From: Thelephora terrestris
Lineage: Eukaryota; Basidiomycota; Agaricomycetes; Thelephorales; Thelephoraceae
Reading direction: 5' to 3'
Length of the DNA stretch: 64,000 nt
NCBI GenBank assembly: GCA_015956445.1
Contig: WIUZ02000016.1
Coordinates: 744,001 to 808,000 of the forward strand
The position numbers and the translations under genes are program-made. How positions within the stretch are numbered: position 1 is the stretch's first letter; each line of letters begins with the position of its first letter. The notes below the pieces were generated by a model. That model did not search any database. It was not told the DNA's origin and worked only from the letters and a program-made list of their open reading frames with translations. This document shows positions 7,811 to 63,095 of the stretch, piece after piece.

Positions 7811-10535
<2,725 letters not shown>

Positions 10536-11110: not shown

Positions 11111-11853
11111 ACCCTAACCTGAACATTGTATTCAAAGTTGTCATCGTGTTGAAATGTTCTCAGCCAGGAGAATTACTGGGAACATTTTGGGAATATTTCG
11201 AACACATCTTAAATGTGTACGAGATGGGGTCAGCCTGGTATCAGAGAATACATTTAGAAAGTTAATCTACTTGAAAATAAAATGTACACATGGTAGAACA
11301 TTGGAAGAGCATCTAAAAGGAAATCACGCTGCTGTCAGTGAGAACATGGAGAGAACATTGGCTGAATACATCTGAAATGTTGTTGGGGTGTGGCTACTGG
11401 GAACATTTCAGACACATCACTCATGTACATTTAGAATGTGATCGTCATGACTCAGGTGGGCACATTTCAGTCACAGGCTCCATGTACATTTGAAATGTAT
11501 TTGAGATGCACTTGGGCCATGGAACTGGAATGGTGGTTGATGATCACATCCCAGATGTAACTTGTGATCAAGGACATGAACATGTCACGAACGCGTGACA
11601 TAGTAACCAAAATCACACAGATAATCCAAGACATTGGTCTTATTCGCAGTAATAGTAATACAAAGACAACTAAACGAAACTACAAGTTCAGACAAGGACA
11701 AAAGGATCTACGTCACAACCACATTCCTGAGCAAACGGACAGCGATGAGCGAAATGGTGAGGGTTGTGTACACTCTGAGGGCAATACGAATAAACTCGAG
11801 TTACCGGATCTTGCCAAAACTCCCTGCATCCTAACACGTCATGAAACAAACTC

Positions 11854-12597
11854 TCATGCATTTCTTGCTTCACGTCCGACAAGGCCTCGCTCACTAAGGC
11901 GAACCCATACCGGTCTTGGAGACCCGCCACTTCCACCTTCAACTTCATCCGTACTTGCCGTGACTTGTCGGAGGGACGACAACGTTGACCAGAATGAGTC
12001 ATCGGATTCTTGCGGGTCCTCTTCTTCTGGGACCTCTCTACCATCTGGCGAACTGGGGCAGGACTCCAGGGAGGGGATGGAGGGAGAGGAACGCCCTGAT
12101 CCTGGCGGAGGCGAAGGGATGACTGGGGACTTGCAAGGGGGGTCGGTGCAGTAAGCCCCGTGACATTGATGTCCGAAATATCGGAAGAGAGATGCCTGGA
12201 AAGGTCCCCAATGTTCCAAAGCGAAGTGAGAGAAGTCATCATTTAAACTGTTCATGATGACGTACATGAGATCCACGCGCTTCTCCAACTTCGCAATCCG
12301 ATCCTCCCGATCCCTCTCCATAATATCCAACAAAAGTACGGCTCCAGGATGAGCCGGTTCAACACGAGGCCTAGAAGACCTGGGGTCTTCATACCCAGCC
12401 TGTTCCCAGAACTCAGTAGGGGCATTGTGGGCGGTAAGGAAGTCGACGGCAACTCGGTTGTCGTGAGCGATGTTGGCGGGAGAGTCATACAGGTGTTGCT
12501 CCACGTTGTAGGGAGCATCCGTCTCGAAGGACGGGACGAAGTCGAAGGGGGTAGCGGCAGCGTTGAGCACGGCGTTGTTGGCAACGAAGGCAGTCAT
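11854..12597 (-). CDS. Y1 protein of Y-A (unknown family)
   Basis: The ATG at 12,597 was chosen because it follows the TATA box by about 95 bp and begins the block conserved in all three Y copies (MTAFVANNAVLNAA). The frame gives 247 residues: an N-terminal domain (QHLYDSPANIAHDN, EFWEQAGYEDP), a charged coiled stretch (ERDREDRIAKLEKRVDLMYV), FSHFALEHWGPF, then a Ser/Pro- and acid-rich tail. A second frame reaching 11,688 is also conserved among the three copies and carries a Cys/His block (HNPHHFAHRCPF), so the real C-terminus may lie in that frame; how the frames connect is not resolved. I do not recognise the protein. Convergent neighbours: none; Y2 is divergent. Confidence 0.6.
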   Translation of the reverse strand: MTAFVANNAVLNAAATPFDFVPSFETDAPYNVEQHLYDSPANIAHDNRVAVDFLTAHNAPTEFWEQAGYEDPRSSRPRVEPAHPGAVLLLDIMERDREDRIAKLEKRVDLMYVIMNSLNDDFSHFALEHWGPFQASLFRYFGHQCHGAYCTDPPCKSPVIPSPPPGSGRSSPSIPSLESCPSSPDGREVPEEEDPQESDDSFWSTLSSLRQVTASTDEVEGGSGGSPRPVWVRLSERGLVGREARNA

Positions 12598-12797
12598 AGT
12601 TATCAGAGATGTTTGAGAGGGGATAGTGGTAGTGGTAGTAGTGGGAAGGGAAAGGAGACGATGAGGGGAAAAGACCAATAATCCTCTTGGATTATATACG
12701 ACTGACTCAATAAAGCGACGAAAAGGGAAGACAACGAATCATGATCTATTTACATCCCAATTAGGATAAACAAACCCTCAACCCCAATCGCAATCCC

Positions 12798-12955
12798 ATC
12801 AAATCCAGAGAAATCCCCGTCGATCATGGGAAATCCCCACCATGCTTCTATTGCTACCATTGATCCAGAGAAATCCCCATCGATCATGGGAAATCCCCAC
12901 CGTGATTCTATTGCTACCATGAAACACCAGAAATCCCCAAATGATTCCATCAGCT
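12798..12955. repeat. Short tandem array between Y1 and Y2 (Y-A)
   Basis: Two and a half ~57-bp units built on AGAAATCCCCATCGATCATG and TTCTATTGCTACCATG. The same array is present in Y-B (about 23,050-23,205) and, in 3-4 units, in Y-C (about 28,800-28,978), so it belongs to the element. Its place between two divergent promoters suggests a shared control region; this is inference. Confidence 0.7.
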
Positions 12956-13106
12956 CAAACCGCTATTGTTCCCGTATTAAGTAATTACCATTGATTGTTC
13001 CAAAGTCCCCTCACTCCGACTCATTTACCCTGCCCTAAATTACGCACAGACCATGTTGATCCTAGTTTGGTTCGCGATAGAATAATGACTCCTGTAGAGG
13101 ACGGGG

Positions 13107-13115
13107 TATATAAGG
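13107..13115 (+). promoter_or_regulatory. TATA box of Y2 (Y-A)
   Basis: TATATAAGG followed by a pyrimidine-rich leader (CTCCTTTCTTTTCCCC) about 145 bp before the Y2 ATG. The same layout is kept in Y-B (reverse strand, near 22,895-22,903) and Y-C (about 30,513-30,521). Confidence 0.6.
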
Positions 13116-13260
13116 AAGAGCGTTCGCTCCTTTCTTTTCCCCATTCTCAATCTCTTCTGTACTCCTCTACCCTTAACCTGAATAAACAAAGTAAGCTGAG
13201 GAATCCTCCTCACGCCTTGCTACTTCTGACTCATTCTAGCAGGAATTCTCCTGCCAGTGT

Positions 13261-13884
13261 ATGTTCAGCGCCCCAAATCCCTTCCCTTCTAACAGTCCAG
13301 TCCAACGCCCTATCGTCCCTGACGCCAGGAGATCTATCTGGGAGTATAAACTTATCAGAAGTCTCCAAGTAAACCGAACAGCCGGTTTACTCACCCATTT
13401 CCCTTACTATCGCCCCTTCGCAGCCCTCGACGCCGGAGTTACCACTCCTCCTTTCCTCTTAGGAGCAGATCATCAGTTCCTCTGGAACTCCGACTTTACT
13501 GAGAGCGTCCTAGCGACCGTCTACTTCAGTATAAGTCCAGCTTTTTACTTCCCTAATCCCCGTATTCACCTTACCACTAACATCCACACCCATTCCCCCG
13601 CTATCATTGTTCTTTGGTGGGAAGTACCAACTGAATTACCTTATTCGGTTATAGAATACCTCGTCAACTTCGAACGTCTTAGCGACCAAGACTTTGATCC
13701 GTTCGTACAGCAATTACACCAGTTTTGTCAAGACTACCATTCGCCAGTCCACCCTTATCAGACAGAGTCACCTCTCTCTCTTGATATCCCTCCTCCTCTC
13801 ACCTCTACCCCTGGAACCCCTTTCAAGCCTCGACCCGACACCCCTCACCCGTCCGCTAATCTTCTAGCGCCCCACAAACAGTAA
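13261..13884 (+). CDS. Y2 protein of Y-A (unknown family)
   Basis: 207 residues from ATG 13,261. The sequence is compact and globular-looking, with RRSIWEYKLIRSLQVNR, THFPYYRPFAALD, FLLGADHQFLWNSDF, YFSISPAFYFPNPRIHLTTN and HSPAIIVLWWEVPTELPYS, followed by a Pro/Thr-rich tail. I know no family with this pattern. All three Y copies keep the frame and nearly the same length, and most changes between A and B are conservative. Upstream lie a TATA box and a possible 5' intron (AAAGTAAGC near 13,188). The stop codon lies inside CACAAACAGTAAGCAGG, which also reads as a splice donor (GTAAGC) a few bases from the element's end, so the frame could be the first exon of a longer transcript. Confidence 0.65.
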   Translation: MFSAPNPFPSNSPVQRPIVPDARRSIWEYKLIRSLQVNRTAGLLTHFPYYRPFAALDAGVTTPPFLLGADHQFLWNSDFTESVLATVYFSISPAFYFPNPRIHLTTNIHTHSPAIIVLWWEVPTELPYSVIEYLVNFERLSDQDFDPFVQQLHQFCQDYHSPVHPYQTESPLSLDIPPPLTSTPGTPFKPRPDTPHPSANLLAPHKQ

Positions 13885-14366
13885 GCAGGCCCACAACCCT
13901 GACAGAACACATCTAAGGAACATTTGTAAAGATTACACAATGCATTCAGATCATTCCACCTGGGGAACATTGTGGGTACATGACTGGGGAAAATTCCAAA
14001 TGTAATCAACCTGCAATGCCATGAGCACATGTTTGATTCCATGGGAGCTTTACATTTCATGTACATTTGGAATGTACTTAGATGATGTAACCCTCCCTGT
14101 GATGTAGGGGAACATGTTGGGGAAATTTGAGCTGAGATCAAGATTTGAGGATCAGATATTGGTAAGGGAAATTTTTGGGAAACTGGGAAGGAAAATTTGA
14201 AATGTGATCAGTCTGCAACCACTGATCGCATGCAGATTCCATTGGTTGGGAACATTCTAAATGTATTCAACATGGTTTCGGCGGTTACATTGTGAGAAAA
14301 TTGCACCTGTTTCTGTGATGTTTTCAGGATGTTATCACTTGTTTCCAGGTAACCTCGCCCCCAGTG

Positions 14367-22102: not shown

Positions 22103-22122
22103 TGTCAGGGTTGTGGGCCTGC

Positions 22123-22746
22123 TTACTGTTTGTGGGGCGCTAGAGGATTAGCAGATGGGTGAGGGGTGTCGGGTCGAGGCTTGAAAGGAGTACCGGGAGT
22201 AGAGGTGAGAGGCGGAGGAATATCAAGAGAGAGAGGTGACTCCGTTTGATAGGGGTGCACTGGCGAATGGTAGTCCTGGCAGAATTGATGTAGCGTTTGT
22301 ACGAACGGGTCGAAGTCTTGGTCGCTAAGACGTTCGAAGTTGACGAGGTATTCTATGACTGAATAAGGTAATTCAGTTGGTACTTCCCACCAAAGAACGA
22401 TGATAGCAGGGGAATGGGTGTGGATGTTAGTGGTAAGGTGAACGCGTGGATTAGGGAAGTAGAAAGCGGGGCTTATACTGAAGTAGACGGTCGCTAGGAC
22501 GCTCTCAGTAAAGTCGGAGTTCCAAAGGAACTGATGATCGGCGCCTAAGAGAAAAGGAGGAGTGGTGACTCCGGCGTCAAGAGCCGCGAAGGGGCGATAG
22601 TAAGGAAAATGAGTAAGTAAACCGGCTGTTCGGTTTACTTGGAGACTTCTGATAAGTTTATACTCCCAGATAGATCTCCTGGCGTCAGGGATGACGGGGC
22701 GTTGGACTGGACTGGTAGAAGGGAAGGGGTTTGGGGCACTGAACAT
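22123..22746 (-). CDS. Y2 protein of Y-B
   Basis: 207 residues, differing from the Y-A copy at roughly seven positions (for example NPRVHL for NPRIHL, FVQTLHQ for FVQQLHQ). The frame, length, upstream TATA box and the donor-like GTAAGC at the stop codon are all kept. Function is unknown. The conservation of frame with mostly mild replacements suggests the protein was under constraint until these copies spread. Confidence 0.65.
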   Translation of the reverse strand: MFSAPNPFPSTSPVQRPVIPDARRSIWEYKLIRSLQVNRTAGLLTHFPYYRPFAALDAGVTTPPFLLGADHQFLWNSDFTESVLATVYFSISPAFYFPNPRVHLTTNIHTHSPAIIVLWWEVPTELPYSVIEYLVNFERLSDQDFDPFVQTLHQFCQDYHSPVHPYQTESPLSLDIPPPLTSTPGTPFKPRPDTPHPSANPLAPHKQ

Positions 22747-23407
22747 ACACTGGCAGGAGGATTCCTGCTAGAATGAGTCAGAAGTGGTAAGACGGAGGAG
22801 AATTCCTCAGCTTACTGGTTTATTCAAGTTTGTGGGTAGAGGAGTACAGAAGAGATTGAGAATGGGGAAAAGAAAGGAGCGAACGCTCTTCCTTATATAC
22901 CCCGTCCTCTACAGGAGTCATTATTCTATCGCGAACCAAACTAGGATCAACATGGTCTGTGCGTAATTTAGGGCAGGGTAAATGAGTCGGAGTGAGGGGA
23001 CTTTGGAACAATCGATGGTAATTACTAATACGGGAACAATAGCGGTTTGAGCTGATGGAAGCATTTGGGGATTTCTGGTGTTTCATGGTAGCAATAGAAT
23101 CACGGTGGGGATTTCTCATGATCGATGGGGATTTCTCTGGATCAATGGTAGCAATAGAAGCATGGTGGGGATTTCCCATGATCGACGGGGATTTCTCTGG
23201 ATTTGATGGGATTGCGATTGGGGTTGAGGGTTTGTTTATCCTAATTGGGATGTAAATAGATCATGATTCGTTGTCTTCCCTTTTCGTCGCTTTATTGAGT
23301 CAGTCGTATATAATCCAAGAGGATTATTGGTCTTTTCCCCTCATCGTCTCCTTTCCCTTCCCACTACTACCACTACCACTATCCCCTCTCAAACATCTCT
23401 GATAACT

Positions 23408-24151
23408 ATGACTGCCTTCGTTGCCAACAACGCCGTGCTCAACGCTGCCGCTACCCCCTTCGACTTCGTCCCGTCCTTCGAGACGGATGCTCCCTACAAC
23501 GTGGAGCAACACCTGTATGACTCTCCCGCCAACATCGCTCACGACAACCGAGTTGCCGTCGACTTCCTTACCGCCCACAATGCCCCTACTGAGTTCTGGG
23601 AACAGGCTGGGTATGAAGACCCCAGGTCTTCTAGGCCTCGTGTTGAACCGGCTCATCCTGGAGCCGTACTTTTGTTGGATATTATGGAGAGGGATCGGGA
23701 GGATCGGATTGCGAAGTTGGAGAAGCGCGTGGATCTCATGTACGTCATCATGAACAGTTTAAATGATGACTTCTCTCACTTCGCTTTGGAACATTGGGGA
23801 CCTTTCCAGGCATCTCTCTTCCGATATTTCGGACATCAATGTCACGGGGCTTACTGCACCGACCCCCCTTGCAAGTCCCCAGTCATCCCTTCGCCTCCGC
23901 CAGGATCAGGGCGTTCCTCTCCCTCCATCCCCTCCCTGGAGTCCTGCCCCAGTTCGCCAGATGGTAGAGAGGTCCCAGAAGAAGAGGACCCGCAAGAATC
24001 CGATGACTCGTTCTGGTCAACGTTGTCGTCCCTCCGACAAGTCACGGCAAGTACGGATGAAGTTGAAGGTGGAAGTGGCGGGTCTCCAAGACCGGTATGG
24101 GTTCGCCTTAGTGAGCGAGGCCTTGTCGGACGTGAAGCAAGAAATGCATGA
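23408..24151 (+). CDS. Y1 protein of Y-B
   Basis: 247 residues from ATG 23,408, identical in this frame to the Y-A copy. The second conserved frame extends to 24,317 and carries VEVAGLQDRYGFALVSEAL and the Cys/His block PQSVHNPHHFAHRCPFAQ, followed by CGCDVDPF. In that second frame the protein changes between Y-B and Y-C are clearly fewer than in the first frame over the same bases, so the C-terminal coding probably uses it. The family is unknown. Confidence 0.6.
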   Translation: MTAFVANNAVLNAAATPFDFVPSFETDAPYNVEQHLYDSPANIAHDNRVAVDFLTAHNAPTEFWEQAGYEDPRSSRPRVEPAHPGAVLLLDIMERDREDRIAKLEKRVDLMYVIMNSLNDDFSHFALEHWGPFQASLFRYFGHQCHGAYCTDPPCKSPVIPSPPPGSGRSSPSIPSLESCPSSPDGREVPEEEDPQESDDSFWSTLSSLRQVTASTDEVEGGSGGSPRPVWVRLSERGLVGREARNA

Positions 24152-24787
24152 GAGTTTGTTTCATGACGTGTTAGGATGCAGGGAGTTTTGGCAAGATCCG
24201 GTAACTCGAGTTTATTCGTATTGCCCTCAGAGTGTACACAACCCTCACCATTTCGCTCATCGCTGTCCGTTTGCTCAGGAATGTGGTTGTGACGTAGATC
24301 CTTTTGTCCTTGTCTGAACTTGTAGTTTCGTTTAGTTGTCTTTGTATTACTATTACTGCGAATAAGACCAATGTCTTGGATTATCTGTGTGATTTTGGTT
24401 ACTATGTCACGCGTTCGTGACACGTACGACAGTTTGCTCTGTCCATGACCCATGGAGCGTACGGCGCCATACAGTGATATGCCCTGCCCATGACCCATGG
24501 GTCATACAGTGCCGTACGGGGGTTTGCCCTACCCATGACCCATGGAGTGTATGGCGCTGTACGACAGTATGCCTTGCCCATGACCCATGGGTCATACGGC
24601 ACCGTACGGTGGAATGCCTTGTCCATGACCCATGAAGCGTACGGCGCTGTACAGTGGTTTGCTCTGCCCATGACCCATGGAGTGTACGGTGCCGTATGGT
24701 GGTATGCCCTACCCATGACCCATGGAGCGTACGGCGCCGTACAGTGGAATGCCTTGCCCATGACCCATGGGTTGTACGGTGCCGTAC

Positions 24788-26290: not shown

Positions 26291-27857
26291 GTACGGCACT
26301 GTACAACCCATGGGTCATGGGCAAGGCATTCCACTGTACAGTGCCGTATGGTCCATGGGTCATGGGCAGGGCAAACCACCGTACGGCGCCGTACACTACA
26401 TGGGTCATGGGCAGGGCATACTGTCGTACGGCGCTGTACGCTCCATGGGTCATGGGTAGGGCATACCACCGTACGGCATCGTACGCTCCATGGGTCATGG
26501 GCAGGGCATACTGTTGTACGGCACCATACGCTCCATGGGTCATGGGCAGAGCAAACTGTCGTACGGTGCTGTACGACCCATGGGTCATGGGCAGGGCATA
26601 CCACTGGGGACAAACCCCAGTTTCCCGGCCCGGGACATTTTAAATACATTGTAAGGAAATGGAAAATGTGCCTGGCAATGACCCACCTGGTACATTGTAA
26701 ATACATTCAAAATGTCCAGGCCAATTTCCTTAGAGTGTTGCCAGCACAGGAAATGCTCAGTACATTCATGGTGTTCCTGGTCATGTGATCTCAGTGTTCC
26801 CATTAGGTAATCCATGGGAACACCATGAATTTTCCCAAAGAAATACCCATGATGTCCCTGAGTGGCTCATTGAAAGAAAACCCTGAGTGAACCCACAGTT
26901 TCCCAGGTCATGTGACCTTGATGTCCTGATCGGGTAATCTGAGGGTAAACCATGAATTTTCCCAAAGAAAGTAACCATGGTGTTCCTGAGTGGCTCATTC
27001 ACAGTGTTCTTTCCAGTGTTCCCAGTGGTGTGATCACAGTGTTCCGAGTCAGTAAAATTCAAATTGTGCCTTAACAGTGTGCCGGAAGTGTACCACTGTG
27101 GTATATCCTGAAAGTACTAAGGCCTTCGACCATGATGTACCAAAATTTGGCAAACCATCAGGAAACTGTGGGAACACTGAAAGGAAACTGGGGACACTGG
27201 GAACATCATAAACTCATTCAAAATGTTCCCAATTTCTCAGTTTCCTTTCAGTGTTCCCACAGTTTCCTGATGGTTTGCCAAATTTTGGTACATCATGGTC
27301 GAAGGCCTTAGTACTTTCAGGATATACCACAGTGGTACACTTCCGGCACACTGTTAAGGCACAATTTGAATTTTACTGACTCGGAACACTGTGATCACAC
27401 CACTGGGAACACTGGAAAGAACACTGTGAATGAGCCACTCAGGAACACCATGGTTACTTTCTTTGGGAAAATTCATGGTTTACCCTCAGATTACCCGATC
27501 AGGACATCAAGGTCACATGACCTGGGAAACTGTGGGTTCACTCAGGGTTTTCTTTCAATGAGCCACTCAGGGACATCATGGGTTGTCATGAACACGTGAC
27601 ATAGTAGCCAAGATCACACAAGTAATTCAAGACATTGGTCTTATTCGAAGTAATAAAAGTACAAAAGGAAATACTGAAAGAAACTACAAACTCAAACAAG
27701 AACAAACGGATCCACGTCACAAGCACAGTCCTGTGCAAACGGACAACGATGAGCGAAGTGGTGAGGGTTATGTACACTTTGAGGACAATACAAATATACT
27801 CGTGTTACCGGATCTTGCCAGCACTCCCTACACCCCAACACATCATGAAACAAGCTA

Positions 27858-28586
27858 TCATGCATCTCCCGTTTCACGTCCATCAACGCCGCGCTCACTA
27901 ATGCGAACCCATAATGGTCCTGGAGACCCGCTACCTCCACCTTCAACTTCATCCGAACCTGCCGTGACTTGTCGGAGGGACGACAACGTTGTCCAGTACG
28001 AGTCATCGGACTCTTGCGACTCTTCTTCTGGGTTCTCTCCACCAACTGACGACTCGGGACAGGACTCCAGGGAGGGGATTGAGGAAGAGGAACTCCTCGA
28101 TCCTGGAGATGGCGGAGGGACGACGGGGGAGTGAGGAGCTGCATCGGTGCAGTACGCTCCATGGCATCGATGACCGAAGTACCGGAGGAGAGATTCCTGG
28201 AAAGGTTTCCAATGTTCCAAGGCAAAGTGAGAGAAGTCCTCATTGAGGCTGTTAACGACGACATACATGACATCCATCCTCTTCTCCAACTTCAAAATTC
28301 TATCTTCCCTCTCTTGCTCCATAGCGTCCTGCATGGGGGTGACCCCAGGAGCCCACCTTCGAGTCCGGTTGGGGTCTTCGTACCCAGCTTGTTCCCAGAA
28401 CTCGGCAGGAGCATTGTGAACGGTCAAGAAGTCCACCGCCACCTGATTGTCATGGGCAATGTTGGCGGGGGTGTCGTACAAGTGTTGCTCCACGTCGAAG
28501 GGAGCGTCCGTCTCAAAAGATAGAGAGAGATCAAAGGGGGTGGCGGCAGCGTTGAGCAGAGCGTTGTTGGCAGCGTAAGCAGACAT
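27858..28586 (-). CDS. Y1 protein of Y-C
   Basis: 242 residues from ATG 28,586 (MSAYAANNALLNAA). The conserved core matches Y-A/B: QHLYDTPANIAHDNQVAVDF, EFWEQAGYEDP, LKLEKRMDVMYVVVNSLNED, FSHFALEHWKPFQ, RYFGHRCHGAYCTD. The second conserved frame runs to 27,692 and keeps HNPHHFAHRCPFAQ. TATATAAT lies upstream, near 28,679. This divergent copy is the best evidence in the window that both frames carry protein. Confidence 0.6.
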   Translation of the reverse strand: MSAYAANNALLNAAATPFDLSLSFETDAPFDVEQHLYDTPANIAHDNQVAVDFLTVHNAPAEFWEQAGYEDPNRTRRWAPGVTPMQDAMEQEREDRILKLEKRMDVMYVVVNSLNEDFSHFALEHWKPFQESLLRYFGHRCHGAYCTDAAPHSPVVPPPSPGSRSSSSSIPSLESCPESSVGGENPEEESQESDDSYWTTLSSLRQVTAGSDEVEGGGSGSPGPLWVRISERGVDGRETGDA

Positions 28587-28978
28587 AGTAGTAGGTATGA
28601 TTGAAGAGAGGGGAGTAGTGGTAATGGTGGAAGAGGAAAAGAGACGATGAGGGGAAAAGACCAATAATCCCCCTGGATTATATACGACTGACTCAATAGG
28701 GGACCCAAAGGGGGACCCAAAGGGGGAGACAATGAAGCACTATCCATTTAAACCCCAATTAGGATAAAACGAGCCCTTAGCTCCAATCACGATCCCATCA
28801 AATTCAGAGAAATCCCCATCACGCTTCTATTGCTACCATGAAACGAGAGAAATCCCCATCGATCAAGGGAAATCCCCATCACGCTTCTATTACCACCATG
28901 AAACGAGAGAAATCCCCATCGATCAAGGGAAATCCCCATCACGCTTCTATTACCACCATGAAACGAGAGAAATCCCCA

Positions 28979-30344
28979 CACTGGGGGCAGGGGTTGGTTT
29001 ACTGAGTTGGTAAACTGTGAGTAAATCACAAGTAAATGGAAAAAGAACCTAGCAAAATACTTGCCTGGCAAGCGCAAAGCAAATTCACAATTTACTGAGC
29101 CAATTTACCTGCAATTTACTGGGTTCAGTATGTGCTCAGTATGTTTACAGTTTACTGGGTCATGTGACCACAGTTTCCCCGTTCGGTAAACCTCGGAAAA
29201 ATTCACGATTTACTGAATAAATTTACCTGCAATTTACTGAGCCACTTGCCCAATCAGTATGTTTTCAATTTGCTGAGTGGTTTGATCACGGTTTACTGGA
29301 CTCAGTAAACTGGAAAAAAACCAAACTGGTTTACTGACGACGTCCCTGATTGGTCAATTTTAAAAATAACCGAAAATTTACCTGGATGTGTCATTGTCAG
29401 TAAACTGCAAGTTTTCTTTCAGTAAATTGGAAATACACGTCAGGTAAACTGGGAAAACACGTGACGATTTGATCGTGCTTTACTGGACTCAGTAAATCAG
29501 AAAAAAACCTAACCAGTTTACTGACGATGTACCTGATTGGCTAATTTGAAAAATACTCGAAATTTTACCAGGACGTGTCTTTATCAGTAAACTGCAAGTT
29601 TTCTTTCAGTAAATTGCAAATACACATAAAGTAAACCAGAAAACACGTGTAAACTGTAAGTAAATTCAAAGTTTATGTGTTTTCTGGTTTACTTTACGTG
29701 TATTTGCAATTTACTGAAAGAAAACTTGCAGTTTACTGATAAAGACACGTCCTGGTAAAATTTCGAGTATTTTTCAAATTAGCCAATCAGGTACATCGTC
29801 AGTAAACTGGTTAGGTTTTTTTCTGATTTACTGAGTCCAGTAAAGCACGATCAAATCGTCACGTGTTTTCCCAGTTTACCTGACGTGTATTTCCAATTTA
29901 CTGAAAGAAAACTTGCAGTTTACTGACAATGACACATCCAGGTAAATTTTCGGTTATTTTTCAAATTGGCCAATCAGGGACGTCGTCAGTAAACCAGTTT
30001 GGTTTTTTTCCAGTTTACTGAGTCCAGTAAATTGTGATCAAACCACTCAGCAAATTGAAAACATACTGATTGGGCAAGTGGCTCAGTAAACTGCTGGTAA
30101 ATTTGTTCAGTAAATTGTGAATTTTTTCAAGGTTTACCTAATGGGGAAACTGTGGTCACATGACCCAGTAAACTGCAAACATACTGAGCGCATACTGAAC
30201 CCAGTAAATTGCAGGTAAATTGGCTCAGTAAATTGTGAATTTGCTTTGCGCTTGCCAGACAAGTATTTTGCTAGGTTCTTTTTCCATTTACTTGCAATTT
30301 ACTTACAGTTTACTGACTCAGTAAACCAACCCTTGCTCCCAGTG
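28979..30344. mobile_element. M3: 1,366-bp palindromic CACTG MITE
   Basis: It starts CACTGGGGGCAGGGGTTGG and ends CCAACCCTTGCTCCCAGTG, with a perfect 3-bp duplication CCA (28,976-28,978 and 30,345-30,347). The arms are long inverted repeats full of TTTACTG/CAGTAAA words, centred near 29,660. It splits the intergenic array of Y-C and separates its two divergent promoters by an extra 1.4 kb. Confidence 0.9.
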
Positions 30345-34786: not shown

Positions 34787-36391
34787 TCAAGCCGATAGGA
34801 AGAGACTCCTTCGAGCGGACCGATCAGCCGCCCAGATGTCACCGAACTCTGGAACACCTGGTCCCACATCTCCATCACCGGGTGACTGCTCGGCAGCACT
34901 ATCGACGTAGTCGAAGAGCGACCCTCCGTCTCCCTCGTCACACCCCTGGGTGGGATCCTCTCTTGCGAGTCGAAGCTCGTGGCGAAGCTGGATCTCCGAC
35001 TCGACCTGTCGGAAGGGACGGTTGACCCGATAGCGGAACTCTCGTCCCCTATCTCGACCAGACTGGTCACCATCCGACTCAACTGGACGCGGATATGGGT
35101 TAGCCGAAGGAGCCATGCGATGAGCAACACGGCGCCGAGAGCGTTTGCAACGCTGCCCTGTTGTCACCGGACGTACCTCTATGGCCCTCGGAGTATCTTC
35201 GGCCCGGTCTACTTCCATGACCTCATCCTCGATCTTGACCAGCTGACTGATCGGCTGCAACGGGCAACGCCGACAGTTCTCCTTGTCGGACTCGGCCAAC
35301 GTAGAAGCCGGAGCCGGAGTCGGAACGGGAACCGCGTTCTCGATCGGAGGCGTCGCATAGGACGACGGGTTAGGCGATGGGAGTACCACCTCGTCGGCGT
35401 ACTCCAGCTCGAACGGAACGTCGGCAGTCCCCTCACCAACCAACTTCGGACCCTCCTTGCAGTTGCAGGTCTTATCCTGCAAGGACGCGACCTGAGCCGT
35501 CAAAACAGCCACTACGTCCTCGAGCTGTTCGGTCTAGGAAATGTCAGCTTCCATCATTCTAAACAAATGATGAAAGCGGCATTACCTTTTCATCCCTCCT
35601 GGCCAACGCCCCCTTAATGTTGTTGTCCCTGACCTTCAGCCCGGCGACCAACTCTTGATGGTTGGCGACCATAGCCTCCAACGCCTCGTTTGTCCCCTGC
35701 TGGAAGGCGGCCAGAGTCTCCTTCATCAGAAGACCCTCCGCCGACAGACGAAGGACGTCTGCCTTCGCCTCCTTCACCTCGCGCTCCAAACGTTCAACCT
35801 AGGCAGTTTGATTAGTCGAGAGTCATACTCGAATATTCAAACGGAGAACCTACTTTGTTCTCCCCCTCCCGAACGAGCGACCACAACAACGAGGTGGCGG
35901 CAGTGGCATGGCGGACGGCTCGAGGAACGGTTGCCCCGTGCTCCAACAGATCCTGGTCGTAGATCCCCCTCTGAAGGGTGTACCAGAGCTCCTTCTTGAT
36001 TGGATGCTCCAACTCTCCGAACCTACCCCTCATCCGGAAGGCCACCTTCTCGGCGATCATGGTACGGACCCAGAGCTCATCGTCCCAGGTCAATCCCATC
36101 AAATGAGGGATCGTCTCCCTGAGCCGTTCGGCATCCACTTCTGTGACGACCGCCAAGATCTAGAAGCCGTTAGCTGGACATCAACGCCCAAAAGAACGTA
36201 ACCTCTACCTAGAGGAAGGCGTTAGTGCAAAAACACGAAGCTCTAGGTCTCCCCCATACCTGGTCATCCGTGGTATAGGGAGTCCCAGCTGCACAGGCGT
36301 AGGACTTGCGGGCAGCGACACGACGGTCGATACGGGAGATGGTGGAGATACCATTGGCGACTTTGTAGGTATGGTTGTTGGGGAAAGACAT
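34787..36391 (-). CDS. E protein gene of E2 (unknown, coiled-coil, four exons)
   Basis: The ATG at 36,391 opens MSFPNNHTYKVANGISTISR, the start shared by all copies. Exon 2 (about 36,165-35,855) begins after a GT-AG intron and contains LRETIPHLMGLTWDDELWVR and RGRFGELEHPIKKELWYTL. Exon 3 (about 35,800-35,590) is a predicted coiled coil (LEREVKEAKADVLRLSAEGL). Exon 4 ends at 34,787 and holds DKTCNCKEGP, FELEYADEVVLPSPNPSSYA, SDKENCRRCPLQPISQLVKI and an acidic, Arg-rich C-terminus. Introns are 50-60 bp, at the same places in all copies. The order is a globular N-terminus, a coiled coil, then a disordered region with paired cysteines. I know no family with this make-up; a structural or nucleic-acid-binding protein is possible. 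Confidence 0.55.
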
Positions 36392-37311
36392 GTTTTGGTA
36401 AGATGATGGGGAAGTTGCTGGTGTTGCTGATCAAGGATGGCTCCAAGAAGACGTCCTTCTTATAGCCTAGATCGGTGATCCTTCACGTGACCTACCTCGA
36501 CGAACCTCATTGGTCCGGGTCACATCAACTTCCGCCCCTGTACCATCATCATTGGCTTACTACATCAAGCTGACACCTCGGCCCGCGGGACGGCCTTGGA
36601 AGAACTTCGTTCCGGAACGCCTAGAACGCGCGCGCACTAAAAATAGGTCTCAAGACCCTGATGACCCCTTTATGACATCACGAACCCCTTTTACGACCCC
36701 TCATGACTTTACGATTACGATCAACCCTGGACCCTGATCACACACGTGGACAGTCACATCACAGTCTCCTAACCGGAGGAAGGACTCGCCGCTATTCGGA
36801 AGCATCGCCCTAGGATTCTTCTGGTTAGCCCAGCGCATGTGGAGTAGCCGTTAGCGTGAAACGCCGGCGAATCTGTAATCCCTTATGTCCCATGAGTCTA
36901 GGCCCTCGCTCCTCATGTTCGGACGCACGATAAGGTTGCCACTAGTCCGTGATGCTGTTACCGCCTACAGACAACAAGGGATGCTGCATGGTCTCTATCT
37001 TTGGCCTCTCCAAAGGAAGCATCCAAGAAGATTCTCACCTAGCCCTTGGGTGTGATCCCCAGGTACGAACTTTCATGACCCCATGCCCCTCTTTCTTTTA
37101 GGACTAGTGTTATCTTTACCCCTATGTTTCATGCGGACATTTCTTATCTTTTATGCAATCCTTCACACGCTAGTAAGGCCCTTTGTCCTTTATCTTCCCA
37201 CGCGTCATTCTTGTTCGCTTCCCTTACTTAGCGTTCTCACACTCCTTATCTCCCTTTGTTCGGACTTGATAAGGGTATATTAGGGTATTGACGTCATGGC
37301 CACTCCTTTAG

Positions 37312-37320
37312 TATAAGTAG
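37312..37320 (+). promoter_or_regulatory. Outward TATA promoter of E2
   Basis: TATAAGTAG preceded by TGACGTCA, a palindromic CRE/ATF-type word (about 37,290), both repeated in E1 (reverse strand near 34,190-34,217) and E3 (TATAAGTAG at 52,697, with TGACGTCA just before). Transcription would run about 450 bp to the element edge and on into the flanking host sequence. Confidence 0.55.
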
Positions 37321-38424
37321 CAACTGTGGCTGTATCGTAGTACCTTAGTTTTGTTACCTCAGGAAATCCTCTGCCCTTCTCAGCCCAGTTGCAGTTAAGG
37401 ACAAGTCAGAGTTTCTTGTTTGATCCAAGACATCCCCCATCTGCTCTCCCTCCCGCTCTGCGCATCAACTGCGCCTCGTAACTATAGAACCTCCGCGTTC
37501 ACATTAGAACACCTCGAGCGTCCAGTCGATCACCTGGTGGAGTCATCAAATCCTGTTGTAGGGATAAACCCTTGTCTGTTAAACCGAACGAAGTACGGTT
37601 TAGGTTGGGTTTCTCTTTAGGATTTCGACCTGACTTGTAGTGACCTCGGACAACCTACCGGAAGAATAGAGACGTGATCGTTCTCTCACAAGCTAGTTGG
37701 ACTAGTGAGTACTCTGCGGAGTCGGCTCAGTGCACTGGTAGTTGTTGGGGTAGAGTGGCCCTGACACCAAGGGTCAGGTGAGAATCTTCTTGGATGCTTC
37801 CTTTGGAGAGGCCAAAGATAGAGACCATTCATCATCCTTTGTTGTCTGTAGGCGGTAACAGCATCACGGACTAGTGGCAACCTCAATGTACATCCGAACA
37901 TGAGGAGGTTGAGCCTAAACTCATGGGACATGAGGGATTACAGATTCGCCGGTGTTTCACGCTAACGGCTACTTCCACATTCGCTGGGCTAAACAAAAGG
38001 AGTCTAGGGCACTCCTTCCGAATAACGGTGATTCCTTCCTCCGGTTAGGAGACTGTGATGTGACTGTCCACGTGTGTGATCAGAGTCCAGGGTTGGTCAT
38101 TATCGTGATGTCATAAATGAGTCATCAGGGTTGTAAAGGGGTTCGTAAAGGGGTCATCAAGGTCATGAGACCTATTTTTAGTGCGCGCGCATTCTAGGCG
38201 TTCCGGAACAAGGTTCTTCCAAGGCTATCCCACGGGCCGAGGTGTCAGCTTGATGTAGTAAGCCAACAATGATGGTACAGGGGCGGAAGTTGAGGTGACC
38301 CGGACCAATGAGGTTCATCGAGGTAGGTCACGTGAAGGATCACCGATCTAGGCTATAAGAAGGACATCTTCTTGGAGCCATCCTTGATCAGCAACACCAG
38401 CAACTTCCCCATCATCTTACCAAA

Positions 38425-40021
38425 ATGTCTTTCCCAAACAACCACACCTACAAAGTCGCCAATGGTATCTCCACCATCTCCCGCATCGACCGCCGTGCTG
38501 CCGACTGCAAGACCTATGCCAATGAGGCGGGGGTTCCCTACACCACCGATGAACAGGTGGGGGGGAGTTTGAAATAACATTGTTATATTTCTAACTCTTT
38601 CCCAATTAGATCTTGGAGGTCGTCAAGCAGGTGGATGCCAAACGTCTCAGGGAGACGATCCCACATTTGATGGGGTTAACCTGGGACGATGAGCTCTGGG
38701 TCCGATCCATGATTGCCGAGAAGGTGATCTTCCAGATGAGGGGTAGGTTCGGGGAACTGGAGCATTCCATCAAAAAGGAGCTCTGGTACACCCTGCAGAG
38801 GGGGATCTACGATCAGGACCTGTTCGAGCACGGGGCAACTGTTCCTCGGGCCGTTTGTCATGCCACCGCTGCCACTACACTATTGTGGTTGCTTGTTTGA
38901 GAGGGGGAAAGCCGAGTAGGTTTTCCGTTTGGATATTCGAGTATGACTCTCGACTAACCAAACTGCCTAGGTTGAACGATTGGAGCGCGAGGTGAAGGAG
39001 GCAAAGGCTGACGTGCTTTGTCTGTCCGCAGAGGGTCTGTTGATGAAGGAGACCATGACCGACTTCCAAAAGAGGACGAACGAGGCATTGGAAGTGATGG
39101 TGCTTAACCATCAAGAGTTAGTCGCCGGCCTAAAGGTTCAGGACATCAACATCCGGGGTGCCTTGGATGTGAGGGACGATCGCTTGGATAGGCACTCGAA
39201 GAAGATCGGGGCTGAAAGTGTTAAGGTTCTTTCAGCCTTTGCAGGTTTATGCGATAGCTGACAGACTTCTTCTAGATCGAGGAGCTCGAGGATCTGGTGT
39301 CGGTGTTGACGGCGCGGGTCGAGTCCTTGCAGGACAAGACCTGCAACTGCAAGGAAGGTCCTGTGTTGGTTGGACAGGGTACTGTCGACGTTCCGTTCGA
39401 GCTGGAGTACGCCGATGAGGTGGTACTCCCGTCGCCTAACCCGTCGTCCTACGCCACGCCTCCAGTGGAGAACACGGTTCCCGTTCCGACTCCGGCTTCA
39501 GCTTCAACTTTGGCCGAATCCAACAAGGAGAACTGTCGGCGTTGCCCGCTGCAACCGATCAGTCAGTTGGTCAAGATCGAGGATGAGGCCATGGTCGTTG
39601 ACCGGGCCGAAGATGTTCCGAGGGTCGTGGAGGTACATCCAGTGACTAAGGGGCAACGTTGCAAACGCTCTCGATGCCGTCATGCTTATCGCATGGCTCC
39701 TTTGGCTAACCCTTACCCTTGACCAGTTGAGTCGGATGGTGACCAGTCTGGTCAAGGCGAGGGAGGAGGATTCCGATATCGGGTCAACCGTCCCTACCAA
39801 CAGGTCGAGTCGGAGGTCCAGCGTAGGCACCTCACTCGACTCGCAGTACAGGATCCCAGCCAGGCCTCCGATGAGGGAGACGGAGGGTCGCTCTTCGACT
39901 ACATCGACAGCGCTGCCGAGCAGTCACCCGGTGATGTCAATGTGGGACCAGGTGTTCCGCAGTTCGGTGACATCTGGGAGGCTGATCGGTCCGCTCGAAG
40001 GTATCTCTTCCTATCGGCTTG
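38425..40021 (+). pseudogene. E protein gene of E1
   Basis: Same exon layout as in E2: exon 1 38,425-38,556, exon 2 about 38,610-38,915, exon 3 about 38,972-39,225, exon 4 about 39,276-40,021, with GT-AG introns in the same positions. Conserved blocks include LRETIPHLMGLTWDDELWVR, KAKADVL-type coiled sequence, DKTCNCKEGP and ENCRRCPLQPISQLVKIEDE. The copy looks broken in about two or three places, consistent with E1 being older than the E2 that landed in it. Confidence 0.6.
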
Positions 40022-40706
40022 AACTAGAGGTTCAGTTGAGCGCGGAGGATGGGGACGCCATGTTCAGAGAGATCCTCGCGAGGAGGGGCCGGTTCTTCGA
40101 TCTCCGGGATGGAACGCTGATGACCATGAGGCCTGCTGTAGATCGAGTCGACTTTTGAATGGACTTATATAAGCATCGTATAACCTTGTAGTTCCGTTTT
40201 GCCGTGAATGTATGCGCGTTGTGTGTTTTGAATGATTGGTGTAAGGGATAAGGAGTGTAAAGCATTCAAAACATAAGGAATGGTAAGAAGAGTTTTGAAG
40301 AAAGAGCATGTTATAAAAAGTTTAAAAATACCATGTTCCTGACAGAGCCGCCCCGAAAGCCACTGAGGGTCAGGTCCATGGGGAGCGCACCGGAGCGGTC
40401 GAAACAACTCAACCAGTGCGCAAGTGTGTGCCCCCAGAAGGTCCACAACTCGGGAGTACTGCGCGCAATGTGGTACCAACGGTGGCAAATGAATAGAAAT
40501 CGGTAGCAGGCACCATGCGGACTGCGCAGCCGGTTGTGGTCGCCTACGATGCAGAGGAAGATGTATCCGAGCAACTCGGGAGGGACTCGAATTGAGATGT
40601 TGAGGAGGGCGTTTCGCGCTCGTTTCAAGCAACCTGCATTTCCCATACCCTCCTCAATTTTTTTCTCCAATTCCCGTATATCGACCTCGTTGACCTCACG
40701 TCCCAT

Positions 40707-42787: not shown

Positions 42788-42790
42788 AAA

Positions 42791-49872: not shown

Positions 49873-52800
49873 TGTCAGGAACATGGTATTTTTAAACTTT
49901 TTATAACATGCTCTTTCTTCGAACTCTTCTTACCATTTCTTATGTTTGAATGCTTCACACTCCTTATCCTTCACACCAATCATTCAAAACACACAAACGC
50001 GCGTACCATTCCCAGCGAATCGTAACAACATGGCTATATACGGTGCTATCAACATCCTGTCAAAAGTCAATCCTATCTACGGCAGGCCTCATTGTCATCA
50101 GTGTTCCATCCCGGAGATCGAAGAACCGGCCCCTCCTTGCAAGGATCTCTCCGAACATGGCGTCACCATCTTCCGCGCTCAACTGAACGTCTAGTTCAGG
50201 CCGATAGGAAGAGACTCCTTCGAGCGGACCAATCAGCCTCCCAGATGTCACCGAACTGCGGAATACCTGGTCCCACATCTCCATCACCAGGTGACTGCTC
50301 GGCAGCGCTGTCGACATAGTCGAAGAGAGACCCTCCGTCTCCCTCATCGGAGGCCTGGGCAGGATCCTGTATTGCGAGTCGAGTGAGGTGCCTACGCTGG
50401 ACCTCCGACTCGACCTGTTGGTTGGGATGGTTGACCCGATATCGGAATCCTCCTCCCTCTCCTTGACCAGACTGGTCACCATCCGACTCAACTGGTTGAG
50501 GGTAAGGGTTAGCCAAAGGAGCCATGCGATGAGCATGACGGCGTCGAGAGTGTTTGCAACGTTGCCCCTTAGTCACCGGACGTACCTCCACGACCCTCGG
50601 AACACTTTCGGCTCGGTCAACGTCCATGACCTCATCCTCGATCTTCACCAGTTGACTGATCGGCTGTAGCAGGCAACGCCGACAGTTCTCCTTGTCGGAC
50701 TCGGCCAAAGTGGAAGCCGGAGCCGGAGTCGGAACGGGAACCACGTTCTCAATTGGAGGCGTGGCATAAGACGACGGGTTAGGCGACGGGAATACCACCT
50801 CGTCGGCGTACTCCAACTCAAACGGGACGTCGGCTGTTCCCTGTCCAACCAACACAGGACCTTCCTTGCAGTTGCAGGTCTTGTCCTGTAAAGACTCGAC
50901 CTGCGCTGTCAACATGGACACCAGATCCTCGAGTTCCTCGATCTAGAAGAAAGTCTTTCAGTGTTTGCACACAAAACCTGCAAAGGCTGAAAGACACCTT
51001 AGCACTTTCACCCCTGATCTTCTTCGAGTGCTTATCTAGGCGATCGTCCCTTGTGTCCAAGGCCTTCCTGATGTTGACATCCCGAACCTTTAGGCCGGCG
51101 ACTAGCTCCTGATGGTTGGCAACCATTGCCTCCAACGCCTCGTCCGTCCCCTGCTGAAAGGCAGCCATGGTCTCCTTCATCAAGAGACCCTCTGCGGACA
51201 GACGAAGCACGTCTGCCTTCGCCTCCTTCACCTCGCGCTCCAACCGTTCAACCTAGGCAGTTTGGTTAGTCGAGAGTCATACTTGAATATCCAAACAAAA
51301 AACCTACTCGGCTTTCCCCCTCTCGAACGAGCAACCACAAAAGCGTGGTGGAAGCGGTGGCATGGCGGACGGCTCGAGGAACAGTAGCCCCGTGCTCGAA
51401 CAGGTCCTGATCGTAGATCCCTCGCACAAGGGTGTACCAGAGCTCCTTCTTGGTCGGATGCTCCAACTCCCCGAACCTACCCCTCATTTTATGGATCACC
51501 TTCTCGGCGATCATGGACCGGACCCAGAGTTCATCGTCCCAGGTTAACCCCATCAAATGTGGGATCGTCTCCCTGAGACGTTCGGCGTCCACCTGCTTGA
51601 CGACCTCCAAGATCTAAGGACAAAGTTAGGACTAATACAACCAAAGTTCTAGCTCCCCCCACCTGGTCTTTGGTGGGGTAGGGAACCCCCGCCTCATTGG
51701 CATAGGTCTTGCGGCCGGCAGCACGACGATCGATATGGGAGATGGTGGAGATCCCCTGGGCGACTTTGTAGGTGTGGTTGTTTGGGAAAGACATTTTGGT
51801 AAGATGATGGGGAAGTTGCTGGTGTTGCTGATCAAGGATGGCTCCAAGAAGACGTCCTTCTTATAGCCTAGATCGGTGATCCTTCACGTGACCTACCTCG
51901 ACGAACCTCATTGGTCCGGGTCACATCAACTTCCACCACTGTACCATCATCGTTGGCTTACTACATCAAGCTGACACCTCGGCCCGCGGGACGGCCTTGG
52001 AAGAACTTCGTTCCGGAACGCCTAGAACACACGTGCACTAAAAATAGGTCTCATGACCTTGACGACCCCTTTACGACCCCTGATGACTCATTCATGACAT
52101 CACGATAACGACCAACCCTGGACCCTGATCACACACGTGGACAGTCACATCACAGTCTCCTAACCGGAGGAAGGAATCGCCGCTATTCGGAAGCATTGCC
52201 TTAGGATCCTGCTCAGCGAATGTGGAAGTAGCTGTTAGCGTGAAACACTGGCGAATCTGTAATCCCTCATGTCCCATGAGTCTAGGCCCGACCTCCTCAT
52301 GTTCGGACGTACGTTGAGGTTGCCACTAGTCCGTGATGCTGTTACCGCCTACAGACAACAAGGGATGATGAATGGTCTCTATCTTTGGCCTCTCCAAAGG
52401 AAGCATCCAAGAAGATTCTCACCTGACCCTTGGGTGTGATCCCCAGGTACGAACTTTCATGACCCCATGCCCCTATTTCTTTTAGGACTAGTGTTATCTT
52501 TACCCCTATGTTTCATGCAGACATTTGTTATCTTTTATGCAATCCTTCACACGCTAGTAAGGCCCTTTGTCCTGTATTCTCCCACGTGTCATAATTGCTC
52601 GCTTCCCTTACTTAGCATTCACACACTCCTTATCTCCCTTTGTTCTGGCTTGATAAGGGTATATTAGGGTTACTGACGTCATGGCCACTCTTGTAGTATA
52701 AGTAGCAACTGTGGCTGTATGGTAGTACCTTAGTTTTGTTACCTCAGGAAATCCTCTGCCCTTCTCAGCCCAGTTGCAGTTAAAGACAAGTCAGAGTTTC

Positions 52801-53152
52801 TTGTTTGAACACAAGGCATCCCCCATCTGCTCTCCCTCCCGCTCTGCGCGTCAACTGCGCCTTGTAACTATAGAACCCCAGCGTTCACCTTATAGAATAC
52901 CTCAAGCGTCCAGTCAATCACCTGGTGGAGTCATCAAACCTGTTGTAGGGATAAACCCTTGCTTGTTAAACCGAACAAAGTACGGTTTAGGTTGGGTTTC
53001 CCTTTAGGATTTCGACCTGACTTGTAGTGACCTCGGACAACCTACCGGAAGAATAGAGAAGTGATCTTTCTCTCACAGCTAGTTGGACTAGTGAGTACTC
53101 TGCGGAGTCGGCTCAGTGCACTGGTAGTTGTTGGGGTAGAGTGGCCCTGACA
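49873..53152 (-). mobile_element. E3: 3,280-bp TGTCA element, looks whole
   Basis: It starts TGTCAGGAACATGGTA and ends GTAGAGTGGCCCTGACA with a perfect 5-bp duplication GGAGG (49,868-49,872 and 53,153-53,157), inside the V gene. Single uninterrupted copy, so it defines the family: left end, spliced E gene on the - strand, a ~600-bp upstream region with CACGTGACC words, an outward TATAAGTAG promoter at 52,697, then about 450 bp to the right end. There are no direct terminal repeats. TG...CA ends with a 5-bp duplication would also suit a very long solo LTR. Confidence 0.9.
50196..51794 (-). CDS. E protein gene of E3 (unknown, four exons)
   Basis: Exon 1 51,794-about 51,661 (MSFPNNHTYKVAQGISTISH); intron with GTGGGG to CTTAG ends. 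Exon 2 about 51,615-51,308 (LRETIPHLMGLTWDDELWVR, ELWYTLVRGIYDQDLFEHGA); intron GTAGGTT to GCCTAG. Exon 3 about 51,252-50,995, a coiled coil (LEREVKEAKADVLRLSAEGL) ending DKHSKKIRGESAK. Exon 4 about 50,943-50,196 opens IEELEDLVSMLTAQVESLQD, carries KTCNCKEGP and ENCRRCLLQPISQLVKIEDE, and ends RSLFLSA. The intron sites are the same as in E1 and E2. A multi-intron gene inside a small mobile unit is unusual for both DNA transposons and LTRs. Function is unknown. Confidence 0.6.
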
Positions 53153-62130: not shown

Positions 62131-62134
62131 GAGG

Positions 62135-63095
<961 letters not shown>

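What the first reader, a model, noticed from the sequence alone, without database searches (positions are those of the whole stretch)
11583..53152. Two gene-bearing element families (E, Y) share ends, target duplication length and layout
Y (2.3 kb, three copies) and E (3.3 kb, three copies plus one partial) encode unrelated proteins. Both start TGTCA-N-GAAC, both end CCCTGACA, all six complete copies have perfect 5-bp duplications, and both carry one gene reading toward the TGTCANGAAC end and a TATA promoter firing out of the other end. There is no transposase and there are no direct terminal repeats. Two readings fit: very long solo LTRs that each carry a gene, or cargo elements mobilised by a shared integrase-like enzyme (Ginger-type ends also follow TGTNR). 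Neither is standard, and gene-carrying units this small appear undescribed to me.
Basis: partly seen in the sequence, partly recalled or inferred. Interest (0 to 1): 0.88.

Follow-up and report, generated by a model that had tools for sequence, protein, structure and literature searches.

The report
Retrotransposon end-repeats that carry genes
Two families of mobile DNA in what looks like a fungal genome appear to be leftover single end-repeats of retrotransposons, and unusually these end-repeats each contain conserved protein genes, so the genes could outlive the element that carried them.

Summary
Six complete units (three E, three Y) have TGTCA...TGACA ends and perfect 5-bp target duplications, and all six fit a published chromovirus (Ty3/Gypsy, Sushi clade) integrase motif. 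The fourth E copy is cut by the window edge. Empty-site comparisons support four of the six insertions well.

Best reading: solo LTRs with protein genes inside the LTR. Y1 and Y2 are almost identical up to nt 1590 (4 differences in 1589 sites), then diverge (67 in 731). The switch lies strictly within nt 1411-1590, best fit 1569-1590, between a TATA box (1525) and AATAAA (1599). That is where template switching between co-packaged retroelement RNAs is expected. The E copies do not show this clearly.

The antisense U3 genes are conserved too (about 0.22). None of the proteins had a credible relative in the libraries searched.

Paired LTRs, PBS, PPT and pol could not be tested, as no genome is held; membership is inferred. 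Protein-coding LTRs are known (MMTV sag); my searches listed no fungal LTR with genes.

The parts
11583..13904 (+). Y1, complete unit (solo LTR); TSD GAACA at 11578-11582 and 13905-13909
11688..12597 (-). Y1 gene A, antisense in U3: 211 codons from ATG 12597, then a 92-codon tail in the +1 frame (11966-11691) to the stop; how the frames join is unresolved
   Evidence: ORFs; phase counts; positions; dN/dS 0.23 (first frame) and 0.06 (tail) Y1 vs Y3
13107..13115 (+). Y1 sense TATA box TATATAAGG (element nt 1525); AATAAA follows at element nt 1599
13151..13172 (+). Best-fit Y1/Y2 breakpoint interval (element nt 1569-1590); strictly the breakpoint may lie anywhere in element nt 1411-1590
   Evidence: change point 1590, 4/1589 vs 67/731 differences, 0 of 1000 permutations as extreme; single differences listed
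13261..13884 (+). Y1 gene B, sense, 207 aa, in the R-U5 part; stop codon ends 20 nt before the unit's end
   Evidence: dN/dS 0.037-0.062; alignment A1
22103..24422 (-). Y2, complete unit; TSD CGTAC; sits in a 45-bp tandem repeat array that resumes in register
22123..22746 (-). Y2 gene B, 207 aa
23408..24317 (+). Y2 gene A (antisense to the unit)
27584..31314 (+). Y3, complete unit interrupted by a foldback insertion 28979-30344; TSD TGGGT
27692..28586 (-). Y3 gene A
30671..31294 (+). Y3 gene B, 207 aa
33743..40344 (-). E2, complete unit split by E1; TSD GAGCC; lies in a gene with an uninterrupted paralog at 19923-21108; its own gene has two in-frame stops
34467..37766 (+). E1, complete unit nested in E2; TSD CCAAG
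34651..36391 (-). E1 gene, antisense in U3, 5 proposed exons, 494 aa, open
   Evidence: dN/dS
37312..37317 (+). E1 sense TATA box (within AGTATAAGTAGC, element nt 2844-2855)
38425..40158 (+). E2 gene, same exon layout, two in-frame stops
49873..53152 (+). E3, complete unit; TSD GGAGG; with it left out, an adjoining ORF runs on for 48 more codons
50060..51794 (-). E3 gene, antisense in U3, 5 proposed exons, 508 aa, open
63829..64000 (-). E4, last 172 nt of an E unit, cut by the window edge; 100% identical to E1 there

Best explanation
E and Y are solo LTRs of two Ty3/Gypsy (probably chromovirus-type) retrotransposon families whose LTRs carry protein genes. In both families a gene lies antisense in U3: E has a five-exon gene for 494-508 aa, Y has gene A. 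In Y a second, sense gene (B, 207 aa) lies downstream of the LTR promoter, in R-U5. Genomic RNA would start just after the LTR TATA box, carry B once at its 5' end and the antisense gene once at its 3' end, and reverse transcription would copy both into each new LTR. Because the E gene is antisense to genomic RNA, its introns would survive each round. Recombination between the two long LTRs then removes the interior and leaves one LTR with its genes and promoters. Shown: ends, TSDs, insertion of whole units, gene layout, purifying selection between copies, a sharp Y1/Y2 breakpoint next to the promoter. Inferred: that two-LTR parents with gag-pol exist, the family, transcription, and the role, which from position and conservation I guess to be an accessory or regulatory protein of the retroelement.
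For: Ends fit the Sushi chromovirus integrase motif on 6 of 6 units (motif: PMC3601003 Table 3, passages seen; test). Perfect 5-bp TSDs on 6 of 6. Empty sites: E2 flanks match an uninterrupted paralog across the junction, 79.6% over 1203 nt; E1 flanks match E3 at 93.1% and E1's own interior at 92.1%, each over 1201 nt; Y3 flanks match the other palindrome arm, 97.4% over 844 nt. Y2 lies in a 45-bp array whose spacing across the unit (2460) less the unit and one TSD (2325) is three units exactly. Breakpoint: Y1 vs Y2 differ at 4 of 1589 then 67 of 731 sites, change point 1590, 2-lnL interval 1569-1590, 0 of 1000 permutations as extreme; TATA at 1525 and AATAAA at 1599. Constraint cannot explain it: the diverged side holds the most conserved gene, with Y1-Y2 dS 0.40 in B against 0.007 in A. 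Template switching between heterologous RNAs is put forward as one route to recombinant LTRs of the fungal element crapaud (PMC10787394 section 8). The intron-bearing E gene is antisense to the predicted genomic RNA, gene B, in sense, is one open ORF in 3 of 3 copies.
Against: No paired LTRs, PBS, PPT, gag, RT or integrase was seen in what was searched; all six complete copies are single. A U5 of about 700 nt carrying a gene is very unusual and would need a very long strong-stop DNA. E has no AATAAA on the sense strand, and Y3 has AATAAG in that place; Y1 and Y2 have two further AATAAA at 207 and 1127. By single differences the Y breakpoint can lie anywhere in 1411-1590, so it may be in the end of U3 rather than R, and a DNA-level crossover or gene conversion would fall in such an interval by chance about 8% of the time. 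The crapaud authors also name gene conversion, and there U3 is the diverged part, the reverse of Y. E shows no clear R breakpoint: E2 and E3 group together in 6 of 7 U3 bins, R-U5 counts are 11, 7, 8. The integrase motif is loose and was looked up after the ends were known.
Confidence: 0.8

Rival explanations
1. Cargo DNA elements: each unit is a complete non-autonomous element carrying one or two outward-reading genes, moved in trans by an integrase-like DDE transposase encoded elsewhere (Ginger-like).
For: No direct repeats of whole units around retroelement genes in the window. Y's two genes read outward from a central promoter region as compact cargo would. TGT..ACA ends with short TSDs also occur in Ginger elements (recalled, not from a call).
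Against: Inverted identity at the ends is only 5 bp (Y) or 7 bp (E), little for a transposase that must bind both ends. The Y1/Y2 breakpoint beside the promoter and the TATA-AATAAA order have no reason under this model. The ends fit a published chromovirus LTR motif.
Confidence: 0.09
2. Ordinary solo LTRs in which the ORFs are captured host gene pieces or non-functional passengers.
For: E2's gene has two stops. No credible relative of the proteins in the libraries searched. The Y gene A frame change is unexplained.
Against: dN/dS 0.04-0.06 for B, 0.22 for E, 0.23 and 0.06 for the two parts of A, at synonymous distances up to about 1.1 (own counting script, three copies per family). Frames are open in 3 of 3 Y copies and 2 of 3 E copies. 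The proposed E introns keep their positions in 3 of 3 copies.
Confidence: 0.08
3. Non-autonomous LTR elements that move by an unusual one-LTR route, for example integration of a single-LTR circle, so that the single unit is the mobile form.
For: 6 of 6 complete copies are single units, including two with almost identical U3 (Y1 and Y2).
Against: LTR-LTR recombination is well known, and the ratio of solo to complete elements is reported to correlate with LTR length (Du et al. 2012, as cited in a passage of PMC7251063). Single-LTR integration is not an established route (recalled).
Confidence: 0.03

Closest known systems
MMTV LTR and its sag gene
   Same: A protein encoded inside a retroviral LTR; endogenous copies protect mice against related virus (PMC11998498, passages seen)
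   Different: Vertebrate retrovirus with one LTR gene, sense in U3 (orientation recalled). Here U3 genes are antisense, one with introns, and Y has another gene in R-U5; no sequence comparison was made
Antisense additional ORFs of LTR retrotransposons (maize Grande gene23, rice RIRE2, Silene Retand; fungal Boty/BcGypsy1 brtn)
   Same: Conserved antisense extra gene of unknown function near the 3' LTR, in Grande with its own promoter (PMC7264820, parts 1 and 2 of 3 read; brtn passages in PMC8365987)
   Different: Those are described between pol and the 3' LTR, not inside the LTR, so a solo LTR would not keep them
crapaud of Podospora anserina
   Same: Fungal LTR retrotransposon with many solo LTRs and recombinant LTRs, template switching named as one route (PMC10787394, section 8 and passages)
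   Different: Short LTR (U3 under 200 bp) in the passages seen, without genes; U3 is the diverged part there, R-U5 in Y1/Y2
Cassandra, Helenus and Ajax (TRIMs with small-RNA-like sequence in the LTR)
   Same: A gene-derived sequence sits inside an LTR; fungal Helenus makes 5-bp TSDs (PMC10886601, abstract)
   Different: RNA-gene promoters, no protein genes, short elements
Sushi-clade chromoviruses (Ty3/Gypsy)
   Same: Integrase motifs at both LTR ends (PMC3601003, passages with Table 3)
   Different: Training length of the modelled LTRs is 572; no pol sequence is available here to place E and Y

Membership tests
LTR of a Ty3/Gypsy retrotransposon | TG...CA ends with short inverted repeats matching an integrase motif | tested here: met
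   TGTYANR...CNTNACA on 6 of 6 units
LTR of a Ty3/Gypsy retrotransposon | Fixed short target duplication | tested here: met
   Perfect 5 bp on 6 of 6
LTR of a Ty3/Gypsy retrotransposon | U3-R-U5 order: promoter, then polyadenylation signal | tested here: inconclusive
   Y1 and Y2: TATA 1525 or 1524, AATAAA 1599; Y3 has AATAAG; E has a TATA box but no AATAAA; no RNA data
LTR of a Ty3/Gypsy retrotransposon | Recombination signature at R from strand transfer (supporting, not strictly defining) | tested here: inconclusive
   Seen for Y1/Y2 (best fit 1569-1590, strict 1411-1590); not clear among E copies
LTR of a Ty3/Gypsy retrotransposon | Two direct copies flank an interior with PBS, gag, pol and PPT | not testable with these tools
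   No genome held; none seen in the window
Cargo DNA transposon (Ginger-like) | DDE transposase in the element or an autonomous relative | not testable with these tools
   None in the 37 window ORFs and 3 typed proteins scanned; genome not held
Cargo DNA transposon (Ginger-like) | Extended terminal inverted repeats (recalled as typical) | tested here: not met
   Inverted identity of 5 bp in Y and 7 bp in E
LTR retrotransposon with antisense additional ORF (Grande/Boty type) | Antisense ORF between pol and the 3' LTR | tested here: not met
   The antisense gene lies inside the TSD-bounded unit in both families

The most novel reading that the evidence does not exclude
LTR-borne genes are a strategy: by lying inside the LTR, a retroelement gene is doubled in each full copy and outlives self-deletion, so every solo LTR stays a small stand-alone expression unit, for example for a repressor that bars new copies of the same family, as endogenous MMTV Sag bars related virus. 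Two unrelated families in one stretch, and in Y genes at both U3 and U5, would mean it arose more than once.
Probability: 0.2. Interest if true: 0.85.

Novelty: new variant of a known kind. Interest (0 to 1): 0.62.

Why it matters
If right, LTRs in this organism are not just promoters: they are mobile gene units that stay complete after the retrotransposon has deleted itself. Annotation that masks LTRs, or calls these ORFs host genes, would miss them. It would also give a concrete case of how an accessory gene comes to lie in U3 or U5, through a shift of the polypurine tract or primer site, and would make the function of antisense retroelement genes testable with solo copies.

Tried and rejected
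Relatives elsewhere: gene B in viral contigs and genome contigs, an E3 exon ORF in viral contigs, two neighbouring ORFs in viral contigs: patterns matched, none confirmed.

Structure: AlphaFold2 of gene B with 3 sequences gave mean pLDDT 37; not used, no fold search made.

Domains: Pfam, PHROGs, NCBIfam, PDB sequences. For E, A and B only sub-threshold Pfam matches came up: DUF16 E 0.85 for E, DUF7500 E 0.098 for the gene A tail ORF. For E the PHROGs, NCBIfam and PDB queries used one exon ORF; the spliced protein went to Pfam only. The gene A tail was not sent to the PDB search.

Joining the two frames of Y gene A: many GT..AG candidates keep the frame open, none of those listed has a CTRAY branch site. 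By eye in the sequences, the frame change falls in a stretch of about 36 nt without differences between Y1 and Y3. Frameshift or an unusual intron stays open. A parallel break in E was resolved by a proposed fourth intron of 49 nt in 3 of 3 copies.

Retroelement motifs by pattern: no RT pattern; seven loose HHCC-like, one protease-like and eight GPY/F matches, which I judge chance. Pfam saw 37 window ORFs; 31 of these are among the 161 ORFs of 80 aa or more outside the units, repeats and Helitron region, so 130 were not scanned.

E topology test for an R breakpoint: not decisive.

Literature: searches (one search found 0 papers). Passages also seen in PMC1560396, PMC9674265, PMC5408684, without bearing. 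Only open-licence PMC papers are searched, and most hits were seen as listings.
Full report
OBSERVATION. The six complete units exist as described: Y1 11583-13904, Y2 22103-24422 (minus), Y3 27584-31314, E1 34467-37766, E2 33743-40344 (minus), E3 49873-53152. All six have perfect 5-bp duplications. E1 is nested in E2, and Y3 carries a foldback insertion of about 1.37 kb. A fourth E copy runs off the window end at 64000, so 'partial' reflects the window, not the element. A scan of all TGTCA/TGACA pairs 100-8000 bp apart gave 571 pairs, 0.56 expected with equal 5-bp flanks, and 8 found: the six units and two chance pairs sharing one start.

INSERTIONS. Four of the six are well supported. The joined E2 flanks match an uninterrupted paralog at 19923-21108 across the junction (79.6% over 1203 nt; the paralog ORF has only a sub-threshold F-box-like match, E 0.013). 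The joined E1 flanks match E3 (93.1%) and E1's own interior (92.1%). The joined Y3 flanks match the other arm of the surrounding palindrome (97.4% over 844 nt) (all). Y2 interrupts a 45-bp tandem array: the spacing across the unit is 2460, and less the unit and one TSD copy (2325) this leaves 135, three array units exactly. For E3 the support is weak: with E3 left out, the adjoining ORF runs on for 48 more codons. For Y1 nothing comparable was found. These are insertions of whole units at new sites.

ENDS. A published analysis of LTR ends gives the integrase motif of Sushi-clade chromoviruses as 5' TGTYANR and 3' CNTNACA (PMC3601003, Table 3 in passages seen). All six units fit at both ends. 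Of 382 plus-strand and 410 minus-strand pairs, 0.37 and 0.40 are expected with equal 5-bp flanks, and the same six units are all that appear. The motif was looked up after the ends were known and is loose, so it supports rather than proves the family.

GENES. E: an antisense gene with four proposed introns in the same positions in 3 of 3 copies: 100, 55, 52 and 49 nt in E1; 53, 55, 50, 49 in E2; 49, 55, 55, 49 in E3, all GT..AG. The product is 494 aa in E1 and 508 aa in E3; E2 has two in-frame stops. dN/dS is 0.225, 0.217 and 0.217 for the three pairs, dS 0.29-0.46. Y gene A is also antisense: a first frame of 211 codons (dN/dS 0.23, Y1-Y3) and a 92-codon tail in the +1 frame (0.06). How they join is unresolved. 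It is open in 3 of 3 copies, with dN/dS 0.037, 0.062 and 0.054 at dS 0.40, 1.00 and 1.14. With three copies and my own counting script these are rough figures, but the third-position pattern is plain in the alignment and the phase counts. The distances reflect the history of the source elements; they do not show selection after insertion. None of the proteins has a credible match in Pfam, PHROGs, NCBIfam or PDB sequences; E was sent to the last three as one exon only.

THE BREAKPOINT. Y1 and Y2 differ at 4 of 1589 sites and then at 67 of 731. The best change point is nt 1590, 2-lnL interval 1569-1590, and none of 1000 permutations reaches the observed likelihood gain. By single differences (1410 and 1591) it may lie anywhere in 1411-1590. 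The TATA box starts at 1525 and an AATAAA at 1599, so with a start site about 30 nt after the TATA box (recalled rule) the best-fit interval lies inside R, the strict one spans the end of U3 and R. Different constraint cannot cause this, because the diverged part holds the most conserved gene: dS is 0.007 in gene A and 0.40 in gene B for the same pair. When two different RNAs are packaged together, minus-strand strong-stop DNA (R-U5) from one can jump to the 3' R of the other and yield an LTR with U3 of one parent and R-U5 of the other. Template switching of this kind is put forward for the fungal element crapaud as one possibility beside gene conversion and selection (PMC10787394, section 8); there U3 is the diverged part, here R-U5. 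A DNA-level crossover would fall in the strict interval by chance about 8% of the time (180 of 2322 nt). E gives no clear second case: E2 and E3 group together in 6 of 7 U3 bins, E1 and E3 in one, and R-U5 has counts 11, 7 and 8.

MECHANISM. I read the units as solo LTRs with genes. Genomic RNA starting in R would hold B at its 5' end and the antisense gene at its 3' end; each new copy gets both genes in both LTRs, and LTR-LTR recombination leaves one. A passage of PMC7251063 cites Du et al. 2012 for a correlation of the solo-to-complete ratio with LTR length, which would make single copies the common form here. Antisense placement explains why the E gene may keep introns while gene B is a single open ORF. 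A possible origin is a shift of the polypurine tract upstream of an antisense extra ORF like those of Grande or Boty (PMC7264820), which would turn it into part of U3; likewise a shift of the primer site downstream would turn a 5' ORF into part of U5. This is inference. Function is a guess: accessory or regulatory.

LIMITS. No genome is held, so paired LTRs, PBS, PPT and pol could not be sought outside the window, and metagenome contigs were not open to scans. 130 of 161 ORFs of 80 aa or more outside the units, repeats and Helitron region were not sent to Pfam. Host identity is inferred from F-box-like matches below threshold, a Helitron and short introns, probably an agaricomycete fungus (recalled traits, not tested).

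COMPARISON AND NOVELTY. MMTV Sag is an LTR-encoded protein (PMC11998498, passages), so the kind is known. Antisense genes in plant and fungal elements are described outside the LTR. RNA-gene sequences inside LTRs are known (PMC10886601, abstract). Searches listed no fungal LTR with protein genes, within open-licence papers and mostly from listings. I rate it a new variant of a known kind.

Noticed in passing
9339-10300 and 55576-56533: Two foldback elements with 58-bp subrepeats and arms about 97% complementary, about 90% alike to each other; the second lies between two parts of a Helitron helicase reading frame.
   Followed up: partly
24878-26175, 26602-27583 with 31315-31562, 28979-30344: Several large, nearly perfect palindromes (arms 97-100% complementary); Y3 lies inside one and holds another.
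   Followed up: partly
54738-61693 (-): Helitron with DUF6570, Helitron_like_N and PIF1 helicase parts.
   Followed up: no
21663-22102, 24443-24792, 26308-26604, 31564-31828, 63185-63828: Tandem arrays of 45-bp and 35-bp units whose consensus units hold short CCATGG- or CATGGG-type palindromes.
   Followed up: no
20140-21576 (+) and 32570-40713 (-): Two copies of a gene with a sub-threshold F-box-like match (E 0.013); one is open, the other is interrupted by E2. Another such ORF at 43678-45333 (E 0.004).
   Followed up: yes
41516-42181, 47019-47840, 49121-49891 (all -): ORFs of unknown kind without credible hits in Pfam, PHROGs or NCBIfam; by eye the first two share a motif, and the third adjoins the E3 insertion.
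   Followed up: partly
61972-63018 (-): ORF with an ATP synthase alpha/beta nucleotide-binding domain, E 7.1e-44.
   Followed up: no
13191-13239 in Y1, same place in Y2 and Y3: Conserved GTAAGCTGAGG donor-like site after the AATAAA and a possible 49-nt leader intron (Y1) with CTGAC or CTAAC branch-like site before gene B, seen by eye in the sequences; could let a downstream gag be reached by splicing.
   Followed up: no
14208-15665 and 17582-19332 (-): Two ORF groups that by eye look alike, with cysteine-rich stretches, no credible Pfam match.
   Followed up: no
6048-6515 (+): ORF with part of a serine carboxypeptidase (Peptidase_S10) domain, E 7.4e-08.
   Followed up: no
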